A stretch of 64,000 nt of DNA from Ruminococcus sp. (GTDB taxonomy: Bacteria; Bacillota; Clostridia; Oscillospirales; Ruminococcaceae): contig JAFXXD010000016.1 of the NCBI GenBank assembly GCA_017542475.1, forward strand, positions 62,001-126,000, read 5' to 3'. Numbering within the stretch: position 1 is the first letter of the stretch; every line of letters begins with the position of its first letter. A program made the translations under genes and the position numbers. Positions 32,316 to 40,377 of this stretch are shown here, in pieces. The notes below the pieces were generated by a model that was given only the letters and a program-made list of their open reading frames with translations, searched no databases and had not been told where the DNA came from.

Positions 32316-32344
32316 TTGTAATATGTGTCGATATATGCTATAAT
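32316..32344 (+). promoter_or_regulatory. Sigma-A promoter of the giant helicase gene
   Basis: TTGTAA (32316-32321), 17-base spacer, TATAAT (32339-32344). The transcript would start near 32351, which rules out the in-frame codon at 32325 as a start. Confidence 0.75.
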
Positions 32345-32393
32345 AATAAAGTATATGAAAAATTCAGCCCTTTCGGGCGGAACGGAGCTTGAT

Positions 32394-35300
32394 ATGGACA
32401 ACATCATCACCTTCGGCGGAAGTATGACCAAGCAGATCAATTTTGCTATGCAGCAGAATTATGTGCCCGTTTTCCGCAATATCACCCTCACCAACAACAC
32501 CGACGAGACTATCCCCTCCGTGAAGCTGAGGATAAGCTTCGAGCCCGAGTTCGCGAAGCCGTTCGAGTCGCTCCCGACCGACCTTTTGCCCTCGCGTCCC
32601 GCGGAGATAGCTCCCGTGAACATTGTCCTCAACGCCGACTACCTGTTCAGCCTTACCGAGAAAATGGTCGGCAGCGTGACCGTCGAAGCCGTAAAGGGTG
32701 ACGAGGTCATCGCCTCGCAGGTGAATACCATCGAGCTCCTCGCCTACGACCAGTGGACGGGCGTGCTCTTCATGCCCGAAATGATAGGCGCTTTCATCAC
32801 GCCCAACCACCCCAAGGTGAAGGAGATAGTCGCCGAGGCGGGCAAATATATGCAGAAGTGGAGCGGCTCGCCCTCGTTCACGGGCTATCAGGACCGCAAC
32901 CCCAACATCGTGAAAATGCAGATGGGCGCGATATATGCCGCCTTGCAGGAGCAGAACATCGCCTATACGGCTCCGCCCGCGAGCTACGAGACAGCCCAGC
33001 GCGTCCGCCTGCCCGAGGACGTACTCACGGGCAAGAGCGGTACCTGCATCGACCTCGCGGTGCTCTACTGCGCGTGCCTCGAAGCCATTGACCTCAATCC
33101 GCTGCTGTTCATCGTCAAGGGTCATGCCTTCGCAGGCTGCTGGCTCATAAACGAGACCTTCTCCGACTGCTTACAGTATGACGTTTCCGCCATTTCCAAG
33201 CGTATCGCCAAGGGCGTCAACGCGATGAGCGTGGTCGAGTGCACCGACTTCACCGCTGGCAAGGGCGTTGATTTTGATGCGGCTGAGACTCACGCTGCCG
33301 CCCACCTTGAATCCTTCGACGACTTCAATTTCGCCATAGATGTCACCCGCACGAGAGCAGGCGGTATCCGTCCCATGCCTGCGCGTGTATGCGAGAACGG
33401 CACCTTCAAAGCCGTTGACTACGGCGAGCGCAAGCGCAGCGATATCACCTCAGCTCCCTCGGAAATGGACATTATCGGCGATATCCCGCAGGACGGCGAG
33501 CCGCGCGAGGTCACCAAGCAGATGGTGTGGGAGCGCAAGCTCCTCGACCTCAGCCTCCGCAACAGCCTGCTCAACTTCCGCCCGTCCACTATGAACGTAC
33601 AGGTGATGATGAGCGACCTCGGTCAGCTTGAGGACGTCATCTCCACGGGCGAGGAGTTCAAGGTCTGCGCCGTGCCGAACGATATGTCGTTCCAGATGGC
33701 TGACAGCAAGATATTCGAGACTGAAAACGACAAGACCCAGATAGAAGCCGTTGCTGAATCCGAGTTCAAGAGCCGCCGTCTGCGCACCTTCATCAGCGAG
33801 AGCGAGCTCGACAAGATAATGAAGAAGCTCCACAGACAGGCGAAGGTCAGCATAGAGGAAAACGGCGCTAATACGATATATCTCGCGCTCGGCTTCCTGC
33901 GCTGGTTCGAGACCGACAAGAGCGAGAAGGCGAGGTATGCTCCGCTGGTGCTCGTGCCTATCGACATCAACCGCAAGGTGCAGGATAAGTCCTACTCCAT
34001 AAGAGTGCGCGACGAAGAAACGCAGGTCAACATCACTGCGCTCGAAATGCTCAGACAGTTCTTCGGCATCGACATAAAGGGGCTCGACCCCGTGCCCATG
34101 GACGAGAACGGCGTTGACCTGCCGCTCATTTTCAGCACCATACGTCAGGGCATAATGGCACGCACTCGCTGGGATATCGAGGAGTACGCCTTCATCGGTC
34201 AGTTTTCATTCAACCGCTTCATTATGTGGAACGATATCCGCAACCGCGCCGATGAGCTCGCCGAGAACAAGGTCGTGGCAAGCCTCATCTCGGGCAGGAC
34301 CGAGTGGGAGGAGGGCGACATCTCGATGACGCCGCTTGAGCTCGACAACAAGGTCGCTCCCGCAGACCTCGCCGTGCCCGTTGCCGCAGACTCGTCACAG
34401 CTGGCGGCTGTATACGCTGCAAACGCGGGCAAGAGCTTCGTTCTGCACGGACCTCCGGGAACAGGCAAGTCGCAGACGATAACAAATATGATAGCCAACG
34501 CCCTCCACCACGGCAAGACCGTCCTCTTCGTCGCCGAGAAAATGGCGGCTCTGGAGGTCGTGGAGAAGCGTCTGAACAAGATAGGGCTCGGACCGTTCTG
34601 TCTTGAGCTCCACTCGAACAAGGCTCAGAAGCGTGCCGTGCTAAAACAGCTTGAGGACACGCTCAATGTCGGCAGGGTGAAAACTCCCGCCGAGTTCGAG
34701 GCTCAGGCTCAGAAGATATCCGAGCTCCGCGCCGAGCTCAACGACACGATGTCGGAGATACACAAGATTCGCCCGTGCGGTATGTCACTGTACGACGCGG
34801 CGGTGAAGTACGAGCAGTTCAAGCCATACGGCGGAAAGTTCAGCTTCACGCAGACGCAGATAGACGCGATGAACGCCGAAACCTATACGAAGTGGCGCGG
34901 CGAGCTCGAACGCCTTGCCGCGGCAGGCAGGGAATTCGGCGACGTCACTGCTACTCCCCTCACCTGCTGCCGTCTCACGGACTGCACTCCCGATACGCGC
35001 GGAAGGCTTGAAAGCAGGCTCGGCGAGTTCAAGTCCGCACTTGCGGCGGCGGGAGCTCACAATGGCGAGCTCTGCGCGGCTGTGGGCTCGGAAGGTCTCA
35101 GCTACGAGCAGTGCAGAGCAGCAGCCGACCTCATCACGACGGCTTGCTCCGAGGGCTATATCCTCCCGCAGATACTCACGGGAAGCGGCTGGGAGCTCCG
35201 TAAGGCGGCGGCTGAACAGCTCATCGCTTCGGGACGTCAGCAGCGCGCCCTCAAAGCAGAGGTGCTCGGTCAGTTCGAGCCGTCCGTACTCGCATACGAC

Positions 35301-38192
35301 GTGAGCGGCGCTCTCGTCAACTGGAAGACCGCGCAGAGCAAGTGGTTCCTGCCCAAGCTGTTCGGTACGAACAAGCTCGTCAAGGAGCTCGCGGCGCACG
35401 CTAAATCGCCGGCGACCGTTACAAAGCAGAACATAGAGGGACACTACGCCAAGCTCAATCAGCTCGGTGCGCTCAGCAATGAGATAGTCAGCGCTCAGCC
35501 CGACTTAACGGCGGTATTCGGCGCTCTGTGGCAGGGCGAGAGCTCCGACTGGGATATGATAGAAAAGGCAGTTGCGCTGTCGGATAAGCTCCGCGGCGGA
35601 CTGGCAGCGGCTCCGCTGAATACAGAGGAGAAGTCGATGCTCGCGCAGACGCTCGTGACGGGCTACGGCGACCCGACCGCAAAGACGGCTTCAAAGGCGG
35701 CGGCTGACAAGCTGTCCGCGGACTATGCAAGGCTCGGTGCGGAGGTTTCCGCGCTCGGTAGCGAATTCGCGCTCACGCCCGACCTCAGCGGCGAGGATGA
35801 CTGGTCTGCACACGCTTCGGCTCAGGCTGACAGCGTTATCGGCGCGCTCCCGCAGCTCAAGGAGTGGACGGGTATCGTCACGATATGCAACGAGCTCACG
35901 AGCCTCGGTATCGGCAACGTCGCCGACAACTTCCTCGCGGGCAAGGTGCGTCCGAACGAGCTGCTCGGCGGCTTCGACTGCGACCTCTGCCGCGCTGTGG
36001 TGACCTCTGTTATCTCCTCGACGCCTGTACTCGCGAAGTTCCAAGGGACGCTCTTTGAGGAGACGATACGCAAGTACGGCGAGGTGCTCGACAAGTTCTC
36101 GACACTGACAATAAACGAGCTCGTGGCGGAGCTGTCCGCGAAGATACCCGCAGCGGAACAGTCGGCGGCAAGCTCAGAGATAGGCATACTCCAGAAGGCG
36201 ATAAAGAGCAACGGACGTATGATGTCCATACGCAAGCTCTTCGACAGCATTCCCAATCTCCTGAGGAGAATGTGTCCCGTTATGCTGATGAGCCCGATAT
36301 CCGTTGCTCAGTATATCGACCCGTCATACCCGAAGTTCGACCTCGTTATCTTCGACGAGGCTTCACAGCTCCCGACCTGCGAGGCTGTCGGTGCTATCGC
36401 GCGCGGCGAGAACGTCATCGTCGTCGGCGACCCCAAGCAGCTCCCGCCTACCAGCTTCTTCTCCTCCAATCAGGTGGACGAGGAGAACTACGAGAAGGAA
36501 GACCTCGAAAGCGTGCTCGACGACTGTCTCGCACTCTCGATGCCGCAGGAGCACCTGCTCTGGCACTACCGCTCGCAGCATGAGAGCCTCATCGCCTACA
36601 GCAACGCCAAGTATTACGACAACAAGCTCTTCACCTTCCCGTCGCCCGACGACCAGATTTCCGAGGTCAGCTGGGTGCACGTCGAGGGCTTCTACGACAA
36701 GAGCTCCACACGTACAAACAAAGCCGAGGCTAAGGCTATCGTGGACGAGATATCCCGCAGGCTCGAAGACCCGAAGCTGCGTAAGCAGAGTATCGGCGTA
36801 GTTACCTTCAGCCAGCCCCAGCAGAACCTCATAGACGATATGCTGATGGACGCCTACAGAGAGCGTCCCGAGCTCGAGCAGTGGGCGAATGAGCAGTACG
36901 AGCCCATCATAATCAAGAACCTCGAAAACGTACAGGGCGACGAGCGCGACGTCATAATGTTCTCTATCGGCTACGGTCCCGACAAGGAGGGCAAGGTCAG
37001 CATGAACTTCGGTCCCCTCAACCGCGACGGCGGCTGGAGACGTCTCAATGTCGCGATATCGCGCTCGAAGTGTCAGATGATAGTGTTCTCCGTCATCACT
37101 CCCGATATGATAGACCTCTCGCGCACACGCTCCGACGGCGTGGAGGGGCTCAAGGGCTTCCTCGAATTTGCGGCTAAGGGCAGGAGTGCTCTCGCCGTAA
37201 GAGGCAACACCTCCGCAAAGACTGCCGACTTCAGCGGCGTGCTCGCGGACGAGCTCCGCAAGCACGGATTCACCGCAAATACTGCGGTCGGCTGCTCCGA
37301 CTTCAAGATAGATGTGGCTGTAGCCGACCCCGAGGATACCACGAAGTACATACTCGGCATAAACTGCGGCACGAAGTCCAACTACGTCAACGGCACCGCC
37401 AAGGACAGACACCTCTCGCAGTCGTCCGTGCTTCGCGGTCTCGGCTGGAACACGATGAACGTCTATATCCTCGACTGGCTTGACAACAAGGACAAGGTCA
37501 TCAAGAAGATAGAGGACGAGATAGCCGCGATAATCGAGCGCAGGAATGCGCCTCCCGAGCCCGCAAAGGACGAACCGAAGCCGCAGAAGCAGGAGCTTGT
37601 TTTCGAGACCGAGGAGGTAAGCCCGCTCGCCGAGAGATGTGACACATACAAGCCCTTCAAGGTGAAGGAATACGGCAAGAGCGAGGCTTTCAACGAGATG
37701 GGCGAGGTAAAGATAATCAAGTGCGTCAAGGATATCCTCGCGGCTGAGGCTCCCGTAAGCAGGACGGCTCTCACGAAGAAGCTGTTCGCCTGCTTCAGCG
37801 TGGCGAGGACTACTCCCAATACCAAGGCGACTGCCGACTCCGCGATAGAGAAGTGCGGCGCTGTTGTCACCAAGGCGGGCGAGAACGACTTCCTGTGGCT
37901 GCCCGACCAGACTCCTGCAAGCTACGATATCTGCCGCGCGAACTGCTCCGATGAGGACAGGCGCACGCTCGACGAGGTAGCTCCCGAGGAGATAGCCGCG
38001 GGTATCAAGCTCATTATGTCCGAGCAGATAGCTATGCTCCGCGAGGATCTTATCCGCGAGACCGCTCACCTCTTCGGCTTCACGAGGGTCACTCCCACCA
38101 TAGAAACTGCTGTTTCCCTCGGCATTCGCGAGGCGAAAAAGCGCGGATTCGTGGAGTTCTCCGAAGACGGAAGGATAAGCTATACGGAATAA
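32394..38192 (+). CDS. DUF4011 / SF1 helicase / DUF3320 multidomain protein
   Basis: A 1932-residue cytosolic protein. Order: a beta-rich N-terminus; a transglutaminase-like segment (GTCIDLAVLYCACLE with C218, then KGHAFAGCWL with H244); a DUF4011-type region opening VWERKLLDLSLRNSLLNF (about 390); an SF1 helicase with Walker A GPPGTGKS (K692), a 600-residue helical insertion, Walker B LVIFDEASQL (D1321), then VQGDERDVIMFS and NVAISRSKCQ; a restriction-endonuclease-like segment (about 1606-1709) whose usual acidic IECDG is INCGT here; and a C-terminal DUF3320 (about 1855-1932). Members are suspected of a role in DNA transactions or anti-phage defence. The ATG at 32394 has GGAG 6 bases upstream. 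Confidence 0.88.
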   Translation: MDNIITFGGSMTKQINFAMQQNYVPVFRNITLTNNTDETIPSVKLRISFEPEFAKPFESLPTDLLPSRPAEIAPVNIVLNADYLFSLTEKMVGSVTVEAVKGDEVIASQVNTIELLAYDQWTGVLFMPEMIGAFITPNHPKVKEIVAEAGKYMQKWSGSPSFTGYQDRNPNIVKMQMGAIYAALQEQNIAYTAPPASYETAQRVRLPEDVLTGKSGTCIDLAVLYCACLEAIDLNPLLFIVKGHAFAGCWLINETFSDCLQYDVSAISKRIAKGVNAMSVVECTDFTAGKGVDFDAAETHAAAHLESFDDFNFAIDVTRTRAGGIRPMPARVCENGTFKAVDYGERKRSDITSAPSEMDIIGDIPQDGEPREVTKQMVWERKLLDLSLRNSLLNFRPSTMNVQVMMSDLGQLEDVISTGEEFKVCAVPNDMSFQMADSKIFETENDKTQIEAVAESEFKSRRLRTFISESELDKIMKKLHRQAKVSIEENGANTIYLALGFLRWFETDKSEKARYAPLVLVPIDINRKVQDKSYSIRVRDEETQVNITALEMLRQFFGIDIKGLDPVPMDENGVDLPLIFSTIRQGIMARTRWDIEEYAFIGQFSFNRFIMWNDIRNRADELAENKVVASLISGRTEWEEGDISMTPLELDNKVAPADLAVPVAADSSQLAAVYAANAGKSFVLHGPPGTGKSQTITNMIANALHHGKTVLFVAEKMAALEVVEKRLNKIGLGPFCLELHSNKAQKRAVLKQLEDTLNVGRVKTPAEFEAQAQKISELRAELNDTMSEIHKIRPCGMSLYDAAVKYEQFKPYGGKFSFTQTQIDAMNAETYTKWRGELERLAAAGREFGDVTATPLTCCRLTDCTPDTRGRLESRLGEFKSALAAAGAHNGELCAAVGSEGLSYEQCRAAADLITTACSEGYILPQILTGSGWELRKAAAEQLIASGRQQRALKAEVLGQFEPSVLAYDVSGALVNWKTAQSKWFLPKLFGTNKLVKELAAHAKSPATVTKQNIEGHYAKLNQLGALSNEIVSAQPDLTAVFGALWQGESSDWDMIEKAVALSDKLRGGLAAAPLNTEEKSMLAQTLVTGYGDPTAKTASKAAADKLSADYARLGAEVSALGSEFALTPDLSGEDDWSAHASAQADSVIGALPQLKEWTGIVTICNELTSLGIGNVADNFLAGKVRPNELLGGFDCDLCRAVVTSVISSTPVLAKFQGTLFEETIRKYGEVLDKFSTLTINELVAELSAKIPAAEQSAASSEIGILQKAIKSNGRMMSIRKLFDSIPNLLRRMCPVMLMSPISVAQYIDPSYPKFDLVIFDEASQLPTCEAVGAIARGENVIVVGDPKQLPPTSFFSSNQVDEENYEKEDLESVLDDCLALSMPQEHLLWHYRSQHESLIAYSNAKYYDNKLFTFPSPDDQISEVSWVHVEGFYDKSSTRTNKAEAKAIVDEISRRLEDPKLRKQSIGVVTFSQPQQNLIDDMLMDAYRERPELEQWANEQYEPIIIKNLENVQGDERDVIMFSIGYGPDKEGKVSMNFGPLNRDGGWRRLNVAISRSKCQMIVFSVITPDMIDLSRTRSDGVEGLKGFLEFAAKGRSALAVRGNTSAKTADFSGVLADELRKHGFTANTAVGCSDFKIDVAVADPEDTTKYILGINCGTKSNYVNGTAKDRHLSQSSVLRGLGWNTMNVYILDWLDNKDKVIKKIEDEIAAIIERRNAPPEPAKDEPKPQKQELVFETEEVSPLAERCDTYKPFKVKEYGKSEAFNEMGEVKIIKCVKDILAAEAPVSRTALTKKLFACFSVARTTPNTKATADSAIEKCGAVVTKAGENDFLWLPDQTPASYDICRANCSDEDRRTLDEVAPEEIAAGIKLIMSEQIAMLREDLIRETAHLFGFTRVTPTIETAVSLGIREAKKRGFVEFSEDGRISYTE

Positions 38193-38196
38193 ATGC

Positions 38197-38268
38197 AGGG
38201 GGCGATGCCTTCATCGCCCCGTCAAATCTATGCCGTTTTTCGGGCGGATGTGGGCATCCGCCCCTACA
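38197..38268. repeat. Two palindromic repeats after the helicase gene
   Basis: GGGGCGATG/CATCGCCCC (38199-38220) lies 5 bases past the helicase stop, then GGGCGGATG/CATCCGCCC (38242-38263) ending CCTACA. Both belong to the dispersed family and may end the helicase transcript. Confidence 0.7.
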
Positions 38269-38297
38269 GCGGCTATCACAACGAAAGAAGCGATAAA

Positions 38298-39641
38298 TTG
38301 AACAGACTTCTCATACTCATTGGTAAAATTATCGTCGGCATACTGCGCCTTCTCGGGCGCAATGCGGGCAACCTCCCCGGAATCGTGCTGTGGCACCTCA
38401 CAAGCGGAAAATGCTGCAAGATGTTTAAGGTCGACTGCCCGATAATCGCCGTAACAGGCACGAACGGCAAGACCTCCGTCACCAACTGCGTGGCTCAGCT
38501 CTTCGAGCAGAGCGGCAGGAAGATAATCATCAACAAGGAGGGCAACAACCTCGACACGGGTATCTGCTCCCTCCTGCTCCGCCACTGCGACGGCTCGGGC
38601 AAGGTCAACGCAGACTACCTCATTCTCGAAACAGACGAGAGCCACGTCCCCGTGGTGTACTCTCAGCTGAAGCTGGAAACCCTCGTGGTGCTCGATTTCT
38701 TCCGCGACCAGCTCGACCGCAACGGCGAGATGGAGACCCTCATTCAGAAGATAAACTGCTTCTGCAAGACCTTTGACGGCAACCTCATACTCAACGGCGA
38801 CGACCCCAATACCGCTCGTCTCGGCAAGGCGAATCCCGACAGCAAAAATATCAGATACTTCCGCGCGGACAGGTACGCATTCGCGACCGAGAAGATATTC
38901 GAGGCGTCAGAGGGCAGGTTCTGCCCGTTCTGCGGAGAGGCGCTCGTGTACGAGTTCTACCAGTATTCGCACATTGGCAGATTTGCCTGTCCCAAGTGCG
39001 GCTTCGGCAATTACGAGCCCTACGTCACCGCGGGCGGCATTGACCTCGAAAAGCCCGTGTTTACCGTTGACGGGCACGAATACTCGCCCAAGCTCAACAG
39101 TATCTACAACGTCTACAATATGACTGCTGTCGCGGCAGTGGCGAAGCTCTACGGCATTGAGCAGGGCGTCACCGAGAATGTCATCAACAACTACACCGTC
39201 AACAACGGACGTATGGAGACGTTTATTCTCGGCGACAGGCTCACCACCCTCAACCTCGCGAAAAATCCCGTAGGTGCGAATATGACCCTCCGCGTGATGA
39301 ACGAGATGAAGGGCGAGAAGGAGCTCCTCTTCGTGCTCAATGACAATGTCGCGGACGGTCTTGATGTGTCGTGGATATGGGACATCAATTTCAGCATTTT
39401 CGAGCGCGTCACCCGCGTTGTTACGTCGGGCACGCGTGCCTACGACATCGCCGTGCGCATAAAATGCTCAGGCTATGACCCTGCGAATATCGTCGTGCGC
39501 CCCGACCTCGACGAGGCTGTGGCGGAGCTCGCCAAGACTGAGGGACGAAAGTTCGTCATCGCGAACTACACCGCCGTCCAGCCCACGCGTGCCGCACTGA
39601 AGCGCTATATTTCGAGCAACGGAGGTAAGTGCGATGAGTGA
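38298..39641 (+). CDS. murT: Lipid II isoglutaminyl synthase, MurT subunit
   Basis: A 447-residue Mur-ligase-like enzyme that, with GatD, amidates D-glutamate in lipid II. The ATP loop is VTGTNGKTSVTN (about 57-68). A zinc ribbon (CPFCGEAL and CPKCGFG) is inserted as in other MurT proteins. The C-terminal MurT domain includes NPVGANMTLRVMNE. The likely start is TTG at 38298 (LNRLLILIGK), giving a length normal for MurT, with a weak AAAGAAG site; upstream in-frame codons fall in the repeats. It overlaps gatD by 8 bases. Confidence 0.93.
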   Translation: MNRLLILIGKIIVGILRLLGRNAGNLPGIVLWHLTSGKCCKMFKVDCPIIAVTGTNGKTSVTNCVAQLFEQSGRKIIINKEGNNLDTGICSLLLRHCDGSGKVNADYLILETDESHVPVVYSQLKLETLVVLDFFRDQLDRNGEMETLIQKINCFCKTFDGNLILNGDDPNTARLGKANPDSKNIRYFRADRYAFATEKIFEASEGRFCPFCGEALVYEFYQYSHIGRFACPKCGFGNYEPYVTAGGIDLEKPVFTVDGHEYSPKLNSIYNVYNMTAVAAVAKLYGIEQGVTENVINNYTVNNGRMETFILGDRLTTLNLAKNPVGANMTLRVMNEMKGEKELLFVLNDNVADGLDVSWIWDINFSIFERVTRVVTSGTRAYDIAVRIKCSGYDPANIVVRPDLDEAVAELAKTEGRKFVIANYTAVQPTRAALKRYISSNGGKCDE

Positions 39642-40377
39642 GATAAAAATCCTCCATATGTACGCGGATATGCTCGACCTCTACGGCGACGGCGGCAATA
39701 TGGAAATAATAAAGTACCGCTGCGGAAAGCGCGGCATAAGCTGCGTTATCGACAAGTATTCCATAGACTCGGCTATGCCCGATTTCGGCAGCTATGACGT
39801 CATCTATATCGGCGGCGGCGCTGACCTTGAACAGCAGCACATCTCCGCCGACCTGCTCAAATGCAAAGACGGCATCAAAGCCGCCTACGAGAAAGGGACT
39901 TTCCTGTTCCTCATCTGCGGAGGCTACCAGCTCATGGGCAAATACTACCGCGACGCCGACGGCAACGAGATAGCGGGACTGGGACTGTTTGACTACTACA
40001 CCGTTGCCCCGTCAAGCCGCAAGAAGCGCTGTATCGGCAACGTCGTGATACGCACCACCTTCACGGGCGCTACCGTGGACGTGGTCGGCTTCGAGAATCA
40101 CGGCGGTCAGACGCAGGACGTGAAAACGCCGCTCGGTGAGGTGCTCTGCGGAAACGGCAACTGCTCGAAAAGTCAGTACGAGGGCTACTTCGAGAAGAAT
40201 GTCATCGCGACCTATATGCATGGTCCGTGCCTCTCGAAGAACCCCGAGCTCTCGGACTATATCATAGGCTACTGCCTCGACCGCAGGAACGGCTCGCACG
40301 TGGAGCTTGCCAAGCTCGACGATAAGCTCGAGCTCGACTGCCGACGTGTAATGACGGAAAGGCTGCTGAAAAAGTAA
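39634..40377 (+). CDS. gatD: Lipid II isoglutaminyl synthase, glutaminase subunit GatD
   Basis: A 247-residue class I glutamine amidotransferase-like subunit. The nucleophile is in FLICGGYQLMG (C94), and the histidine lies in YMHGPCLSKNPE. The N-terminus MSEIKILHMYADMLDLYGD is typical of GatD. It supplies ammonia to MurT. GGAGGT precedes the ATG. The gene is followed by the inverted-repeat element at 40378-40495. Confidence 0.95.
   Translation: MSEIKILHMYADMLDLYGDGGNMEIIKYRCGKRGISCVIDKYSIDSAMPDFGSYDVIYIGGGADLEQQHISADLLKCKDGIKAAYEKGTFLFLICGGYQLMGKYYRDADGNEIAGLGLFDYYTVAPSSRKKRCIGNVVIRTTFTGATVDVVGFENHGGQTQDVKTPLGEVLCGNGNCSKSQYEGYFEKNVIATYMHGPCLSKNPELSDYIIGYCLDRRNGSHVELAKLDDKLELDCRRVMTERLLKK

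What the first reader, a model, noticed from the sequence alone, without database searches (positions are those of the whole stretch)
32394..38192. 1932-residue transglutaminase-like / DUF4011 / helicase / DUF3320 protein as a candidate single-gene defence or DNA-processing system
The protein joins a transglutaminase- or peptidase-like module (C218, H244), a large SF1 helicase with a 600-residue insertion, a restriction-endonuclease-like fold and DUF3320. It has its own consensus promoter and is bounded by repeats, between a dockerin gene and murT, without operon partners. Proteins with DUF4011, helicase, Vsr-like nuclease and DUF3320 have been linked to anti-phage activity in my recollection; I could not check this. 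No other defence gene lies in the window.
Basis: partly seen in the sequence, partly recalled or inferred. Interest (0 to 1): 0.75.

Follow-up and report, generated by a model that had tools for sequence, protein, structure and literature searches.

The report
Core ProA-type phage-defence gene in Ruminococcus
This gene encodes a giant protein of a family already labelled anti-phage (ProA), but in these rumen bacteria it is inherited much like a housekeeping gene directly in front of two cell-wall genes, and it keeps its protease-like centre while its DNA-cutting centre has lost key residues.

Summary
The ORF is real: 1932 aa, + strand, 32394-38192. The architecture was described in 2013 (PMC3710099).

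It is not isolated: in 42 of 42 testable Ruminococcus pieces (41 ProA, 1 derivative) murT follows on the same strand, median gap 17.5 bp. And it does not behave as a mobile gene there: on an rpoB tree of 67 congeners presence needs 4 changes, a clade of 32 has it throughout, its tree shares 21 of 33 splits with rpoB, and dN/dS is 0.06-0.08.

New points: the transglutaminase-like triad C218-H244-D263 is almost invariant, while the nuclease motif of most proteobacterial relatives (ECDGxxYH) has lost Glu and Asp in all Ruminococcus rows readable there. Two species hold, before murT, a ~600-aa derivative of DUF4011 plus the helicase insert alone, under purifying selection (dN/dS 0.18). I infer a helicase-gated, protease-type effector with a pseudonuclease clamp. 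Defence in this host is untested; domestication is the main rival.

The parts
32316..32344 (+). sigma-70-type promoter match TTGTAA-17 nt-TATAAT with TG before the -10
   Evidence: consensus match only
32384..32387 (+). GGAG ribosome-binding site
32394..38192 (+). ProA-family gene, 1932 aa
32394..32768 (+). N-terminal stretch, residues 1-125, no Pfam family
32769..33428 (+). transglutaminase-like module, residues ~126-345; triad C218, H244, D263
33045..33047 (+). codon of C218
33123..33125 (+). codon of H244
33180..33182 (+). codon of D263 (third triad residue, inferred from invariance)
33537..34052 (+). DUF4011 (PF13195), residues 382-553
34389..34763 (+). SF1 helicase core, first part, residues 666-790, Walker A K692
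34764..36167 (+). less conserved insert in the helicase, residues 791-1258
36168..37103 (+). SF1 helicase core, second part, residues 1259-1570, DEASQ at 1321-1325
37230..37523 (+). MTES_1575 (Vsr-like) REase domain, residues 1613-1710, motif degenerate
37347..37409 (+). degenerate motif YILGINCGTKSNYVNGTAKDR (ECDGxxYH in most proteobacterial relatives)
37689..38168 (+). DUF3320 / wHTH-type C-terminal domain, residues ~1766-1925
   Evidence: wHTH reading from PMC3710099 (passages)
38198..38273 (.). palindromic repeat between the gene and murT (17-base core repeated genome-wide); no terminator match
38298..39641 (+). murT (TTG start)
39634..40377 (+). gatD (GATase_3)

Best explanation
It is a resident, vertically inherited member of the ProA anti-phage family, and the first gene of a ProA-murT-gatD transcription unit. 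Shown from sequence: family membership, conserved linkage, mostly vertical descent, purifying selection, an almost invariant Cys-His-Asp triad in a transglutaminase-like module, intact SF1 motor motifs, and loss of residues in the REase motif. Inferred: that the three genes are co-transcribed; that the helicase with its DUF4011 and insert senses or translocates on foreign or abnormal nucleic acid; that the REase-fold domain has become a non-cutting DNA clamp that works with the C-terminal DUF3320/wHTH domain; that ATP-driven movement unleashes the transglutaminase-like centre, which cleaves or modifies a protein and so stops phage growth or the infected cell. Its place in an essential operon would give steady expression and make all losses except clean deletions costly (inference).
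For: NF058533 ProA 2098.6 bits vs 1500. Triad, among rows with a residue at the column: C218 104 of 106, H244 105 of 106, D263 104 of 106; Walker K692 108 of 108; motif-II D1321 107 of 108 (sums of its four bins). REase motif: Glu at 1657 in 6 of 8 distant relatives and in none of the other 100 rows (4 of these have a gap); Asp at 1659 in 8 of 8, 11 of 11, 20 of 31 and 0 of 54 down the four bins; His at 1664 in 6 of 8 and in none of the other 100. The REase domain is nevertheless conserved (dN/dS 0.073 and 0.033), as expected of a structural or binding part. Linkage 42 of 42. Descent. A protein-cleaving role for the transglutaminase domain was already proposed in PMC3710099 (passages).
Against: The paper behind NCBI's 'anti-phage' label was not found in my searches. 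Core, operon-bound inheritance is unusual for a defence gene and fits a housekeeping role as well. The ~600-aa derivative keeps none of the enzymatic parts yet is under selection, so some function does not need them. L139 has lost the triad Cys and His as well as the REase residues although the rest is full length; L071 has His at 263. D1640 (all 104 rows with a residue) and D1671 are still conserved, acidic Glu stands at 1659 in 1 of 54 Ruminococcus-group and 4 of 31 Clostridia rows, and 25 of 57 Ruminococcus-group rows (not the window's) have a His in or within two residues of the motif's His position, so residual or rebuilt catalysis is not excluded. That the lost residues are catalytic rests on recalled knowledge of Vsr/EDxHD nucleases. 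Promoter and operon are predictions.
Confidence: 0.5

Rival explanations
1. Domesticated housekeeping protein: the Ruminococcus copy no longer acts against phages but serves a cellular task connected with murT-gatD or with DNA maintenance, which is why it is vertically inherited and operon-bound.
For: Linkage to murT in 42 of 42 testable pieces, presence throughout a clade of 32, low dN/dS, and a selected ~600-aa derivative without enzymatic domains before murT in two species. A DUF4011 gene is also a core gene in every P. aeruginosa isolate of PMC10250203 (passages); its homology to ProA was not tested.
Against: Losses with murT-gatD intact and the neighbouring genes in place (G015, G022, G013), so it is dispensable; R. 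albus-type copies have no murT in the fetched flanks; elsewhere the family is on plasmids and beside defence-type genes.
Confidence: 0.28
2. Conventional nuclease-helicase defence: the Vsr-like domain cuts invading DNA after helicase recognition.
For: REase family match over cut-off; D1640 and D1671 still conserved, and a nearby His in 25 of 57 Ruminococcus-group rows; intact motif in two proteobacterial relatives that are ProA by the same model (L205, L210).
Against: Glu 1657, Asp 1659 and His 1664 are replaced in all 54 Ruminococcus-group rows that have residues there, the window's included.
Confidence: 0.1
3. A relic gene that is drifting towards loss.
For: Absence in sister lineages, four copies without the C-terminal domain, one of them with an internal stop (G045), one frameshifted copy (L133).
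Against: dN/dS 0.056-0.079 over the whole gene and 0.016-0.038 in the helicase core.
Confidence: 0.04

Closest known systems
Anti-phage protein ProA (NCBIfam NF058533)
   Same: Match of residues 16-1898 to 1-1903 of the 1903-position model, 2098.6 bits vs cut-off 1500.
   Different: The two proteobacterial members tested have an intact REase motif (L205, L210), this one not; this one is a core gene before murT.
PADLOC candidate PDC-S37
   Same: 1222.5 bits over residues 379-1921.
   Different: The match does not cover the N-terminal transglutaminase module; PADLOC gave no cut-off.
Hhe (NF042953; PADLOC Hhe)
   Same: Related DUF4011-helicase-REase core; 758.8 and 539.1 bits.
   Different: Far under NCBI's cut-off of 2000.
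[quoted passage not shown]
   Same: Transglutaminase, helicase, Vsr and wHTH/DUF3320 parts.
   Different: No HEPN match in Pfam here; REase motif degenerate.

Membership tests
ProA (NF058533) | whole-protein score over NCBI's curated cut-off of 1500 bits | tested here: met
   2098.6 bits
ProA (NF058533) | anti-phage activity | not testable with these tools
   label only; original paper not found
Hhe (NF042953) | score over 2000 bits | tested here: not met
   758.8 bits
Transglutaminase-like superfamily (PF01841) | score over 23 bits | tested here: not met
   17.3 bits whole protein, 18.7 bits for residues 1-380; 20 of 40 aligned members match at E <= 0.01
Transglutaminase-like superfamily (PF01841) | Cys-His-Asp triad (role recalled) | tested here: met
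   C218, H244, D263 invariant in 40 rows (L139, which lost two of them, was not among the rows)
MTES_1575 REase (PF18741) | score over 38.2 bits | tested here: met
   64.4 bits
MTES_1575 REase (PF18741) | acidic/His motif ECDGxxYH (role as active site recalled) | tested here: not met
   INCGTKSNY in the window
DUF3320 (PF11784) | score over 25 bits | tested here: inconclusive
   21.3 bits whole protein, 26.1 bits for residues 1575-1932 alone
SF1 helicase | Walker A and motif II, two RecA-type segments | tested here: met
Mobile, island-borne defence gene | patchy presence, variable locus | tested here: not met
   within this Ruminococcus genus; outside it, matches on 467 plasmid records, 13 of them with at least 80% of the query in one place, and defence-type neighbours

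The most novel reading that the evidence does not exclude
The DUF4011-plus-insert part is a functional unit of its own tied to MurT-GatD: ProA in Ruminococcus watches over (or acts on) lipid II amidation as an envelope-linked immune switch, and the ~600-aa derivative in G058 and G168 is a stripped regulator or partner that has kept only this unit.
Probability: 0.12. Interest if true: 0.82.

Novelty: new variant of a known kind. Interest (0 to 1): 0.5.

Why it matters
If right, it is a defence-family protein that has shifted from DNA cutting to a protease-type effector and has become core equipment in an essential cell-wall operon of rumen bacteria. It gives a direct test of which domain is the effector in the ProA family, since natural variants lack the nuclease residues, the C-terminal domain, the triad, or all enzymatic parts.

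Tried and rejected
Start at GTG 32325 (23 residues longer): rejected, conservation begins at the Met of 32394 and the ribosome-binding site fits that start. D258 as third triad residue: less likely, it varies (E, N, G and others), D263 hardly does. Pseudogene: rejected by dN/dS. Profile searches for solved relatives of the N-terminal module gave nothing up to E = 1 and for the C-terminal part only weak matches, the best a RAP domain at E 0.048. E. coli genomes: 3500 bases of the Enterobacter plasmid relative had no near match. The one phage record with a match over 80% of the protein (MT836269) is unannotated and unverified; I do not take it as a phage gene.

Rows dropped before counts: one search used 39 genus proteins plus G073 and left out L068, L072-L078 and L080. 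One search left out L068, L072-L075 and L077, L002 (same protein as P0001) and L148 (under 1300 aa); L078 gave no protein; rows identical over the last 1500 residues were merged (131 to 108). A2 and A3 hold 39 and 38 of 41 relatives chosen by me; L139 was not among the 41. The rpoB tree lacks 5 of 72 genus genomes (G016, G026, G031, G049, G066); in its present/absent count G058 counts as absent. The congruence test used 36 shared genomes, without G045, G002, G058 and those missing from the rpoB tree. The tool kept the best 80 of at least 527 genome contigs matches. The subclades for dN/dS (5 and 12 genomes; my own Nei-Gojobori script) were chosen by me. The 10 neighbour ORFs were chosen by me from 5 loci, only one each in L200 and L204.

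Full report
1. What is there. Window 32394-38192 (+) is one open frame of 1932 codons, with a GGAG six bases before the ATG and a promoter match TTGTAA-17-TATAAT at 32316-32344. Pfam finds DUF4011 (382-553), SF1 helicase segments (667-727 and 1313-1565), the MTES_1575 Vsr-like REase (1613-1710) and, under their cut-offs, DUF3320 (1773-1808) and Transglut_core (179-232). It is the only DUF4011 match in the 2.66-Mb draft genome. The upstream neighbour is a leucine-rich-repeat dockerin protein on the other strand; downstream are murT and gatD.

2. Known family. NCBIfam names it anti-phage protein ProA, 2098.6 bits against a cut-off of 1500; Hhe reaches 758.8 against 2000. PADLOC gives PDC-S37, 1222.5 bits. 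The architecture is in the 2013 HEPN survey, which suggested DNA recognition by the C-terminal wHTH domains (overlapping DUF3320), and protein cleavage by the transglutaminase domain as a further line of defence (PMC3710099, passages). I did not find the paper behind the name ProA (searches). R. flavefaciens MC2020 has a 92% identical copy (L143), so the window is probably from a rumen Ruminococcus.

3. Place in the genome. Of 72 same-genus genomes at least 85% complete (G000-G071), 36 hold a full-length copy in one piece, G066 one in two overlapping contig-end pieces, G002 its two ends on two contig ends with the middle unseen, 4 a copy that ends near residue 1716, before the C-terminal domain (G032, G045, G046, G056; G045 also has an internal stop), G058 a ~600-aa derivative, and 29 none. 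In one search, 45 pieces from these 43 genomes were examined; in 3 the contig ends before murT could be seen, and in the other 42 (41 ProA, 1 derivative) murT follows; strands agree. The gap is 1 to 567 bp, median 17.5, often with a GGAG-type ribosome-binding site before murT's start (TTG in 41, GTG in 1). The window's gap, 105 bp, holds a palindromic repeat whose 17-base core has 23 copies in the genome. No promoter match and no same-strand terminator match was found between the gene and murT. Upstream linkage is weaker: the window's own upstream genes were seen in 2 of 20 large loci (G027, G005, a few of these loci with little upstream sequence), while another pair of neighbours recurs within four ORFs upstream of 11 of 27 ProA or derivative loci and of 7 (one gene) and 3 (the other) of 20 lacking loci.

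4. Descent. On an rpoB tree of 67 genus genomes (34 labelled full, G002 included; 4 truncated; 1 derivative; 28 without) presence against absence needs 4 changes; the label 'full' needs 3 against a shuffled mean of 22.6; one clade of 32 genomes, support 90, is entirely full (quick method, SH-aLRT only, letter make-up uneven in many rows). ProA and rpoB trees share 21 of 33 splits over 36 genomes (label shuffles: mean 0.3, maximum 2) and pairwise distances correlate at r = 0.768 (maximum of 999 permutations 0.407). They are not identical, so some exchange is possible. In G015 and G022, which lack it, the genes directly before murT are homologues of those directly before ProA in G003, G004, G010, G029 and G030; in G013 they are those of the truncated group: clean losses, or sites before a gain. 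(G034, the rpoB sister of G015, has a different upstream ORF.) By profile, 21 lacking genomes' murT loci, some with short upstream sequence, showed no remnant; only G058 matched. dN/dS is 0.079 in five close species and 0.056 in twelve others: transglutaminase module 0.041 and 0.062, helicase core 0.016-0.038, insert 0.127 and 0.069, REase 0.073 and 0.033.

5. Which centre is alive. In 108 distinct proteins the triad C218-H244-D263 is kept except in L139 (Cys and His lost), L071 (His at 263) and the very distant L080 (Cys and Asp replaced); L076 lacks the module and L141 is cut there. The REase motif is ECDGxxYH in 6 of the 8 most distant rows (five of six proteobacterial plasmid relatives and the Hhe-like G054 protein; not in L207 from Acinetobacter and L080). 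In the 11 rows of the next bin (Bacteroidota, Paenibacillus kin and others) Glu and His are gone and Asp kept (11 of 11); among 32 Clostridia rows Asp is kept in 20 of 31 with a residue; among 57 Ruminococcus-group rows in 0 of 54. D1640 is kept in all 104 rows with a residue. Against a clean loss: 25 of 57 Ruminococcus-group rows, not the window's, carry a His at or within two residues of the old position (18 of them one residue on), and D1671 is mostly kept. Both kinds are ProA by NCBI's cut-off (L205 2324.4, L210 2223.7, L199 2276.4, L139 2043.3, truncated L144 1904.4). I read this as loss of nuclease catalysis with the fold kept; that these are the catalytic residues is recalled, not tested.

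6. The ~600-aa derivative. In G058, on a deep branch of the genus tree, and in G168 (66% complete, not on the tree) the frame before murT encodes only DUF4011 (residues ~390-613) joined to the insert (~807-1164). The two are 84% identical, dN/dS 0.178; G058's ends 12 bp before murT, and murT follows G168's too. Three gene families upstream of G058's copy recur upstream of truncated copies although rpoB puts G058 far from them: old shared order or transfer, not decided. This is not what a decaying fragment should look like, and no model here explains it fully.

7. Outside this group. R. albus and near kin (L149, L140, L192, L146) show no murT in the fetched flanks; in L149 and L146 the gene lies between Peripla_BP-GGDEF genes and a Peptidase_S26 gene, L140 has ORFs of matching size in the same order, and L192 has such ORFs upstream only (sizes alone). 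Matches occur on 467 plasmid records (244 Klebsiella), 13 covering at least 80% of the query in one place. PADLOC-type neighbours were seen for L195, L201 and L204, none for L199 and L200 (10 chosen ORFs). Two viral contigs matched; their viral nature was not checked.

8. Verdict. A real gene of a known, database-labelled anti-phage family; a core, operon-bound variant with a probable pseudonuclease and a conserved protease-like centre. Mechanism is inference. Interest 0.5: the class is known, but the combination of core inheritance, motif loss and the selected stripped derivative is surprising and testable.

Noticed in passing
L149, L146 (Pfam); L140 (ORF sizes): R. albus-type copies sit at a different, recurring locus: Peripla_BP, GGDEF, ProA, Peptidase_S26. 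L192 shares the upstream ORF sizes only.
   Followed up: partly
L139:7998-13808: Full-length ProA relative (58% identical) that has lost the triad Cys and His as well as the REase residues.
   Followed up: partly
L077:4476-6272 (G058) and L293 (G168): ~600-aa DUF4011-plus-insert derivative directly before murT, under purifying selection.
   Followed up: yes
L133; G121:C36 (probably the same record): Close copy (97% in the best segment) whose frame breaks after about residue 1341; natural or assembly error not decided.
   Followed up: no
L210: ProA with an intact REase motif on a conjugative IncF plasmid of Enterobacter; matches in 244 Klebsiella plasmid records; no near match in E. coli genomes.
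   Followed up: partly
L211 (MT836269.1): Record labelled Bacteriophage sp., unannotated, holds a full-length ProA with the same motif letters as the Bacteroides plasmid copy L204; may be a bacterial contig.
   Followed up: no
Seven genus genomes (G012, G021, G024, G040, G047, G054, G055) show no close murT; none has ProA. They cluster on the tree, so this is weak.
   Followed up: no
G031: Two rpoB matches on different contigs, possible contamination; left out of the tree.
   Followed up: no
L077, L069-L071: G058 shares three upstream gene families with the truncated-copy group although rpoB places it far away.
   Followed up: no
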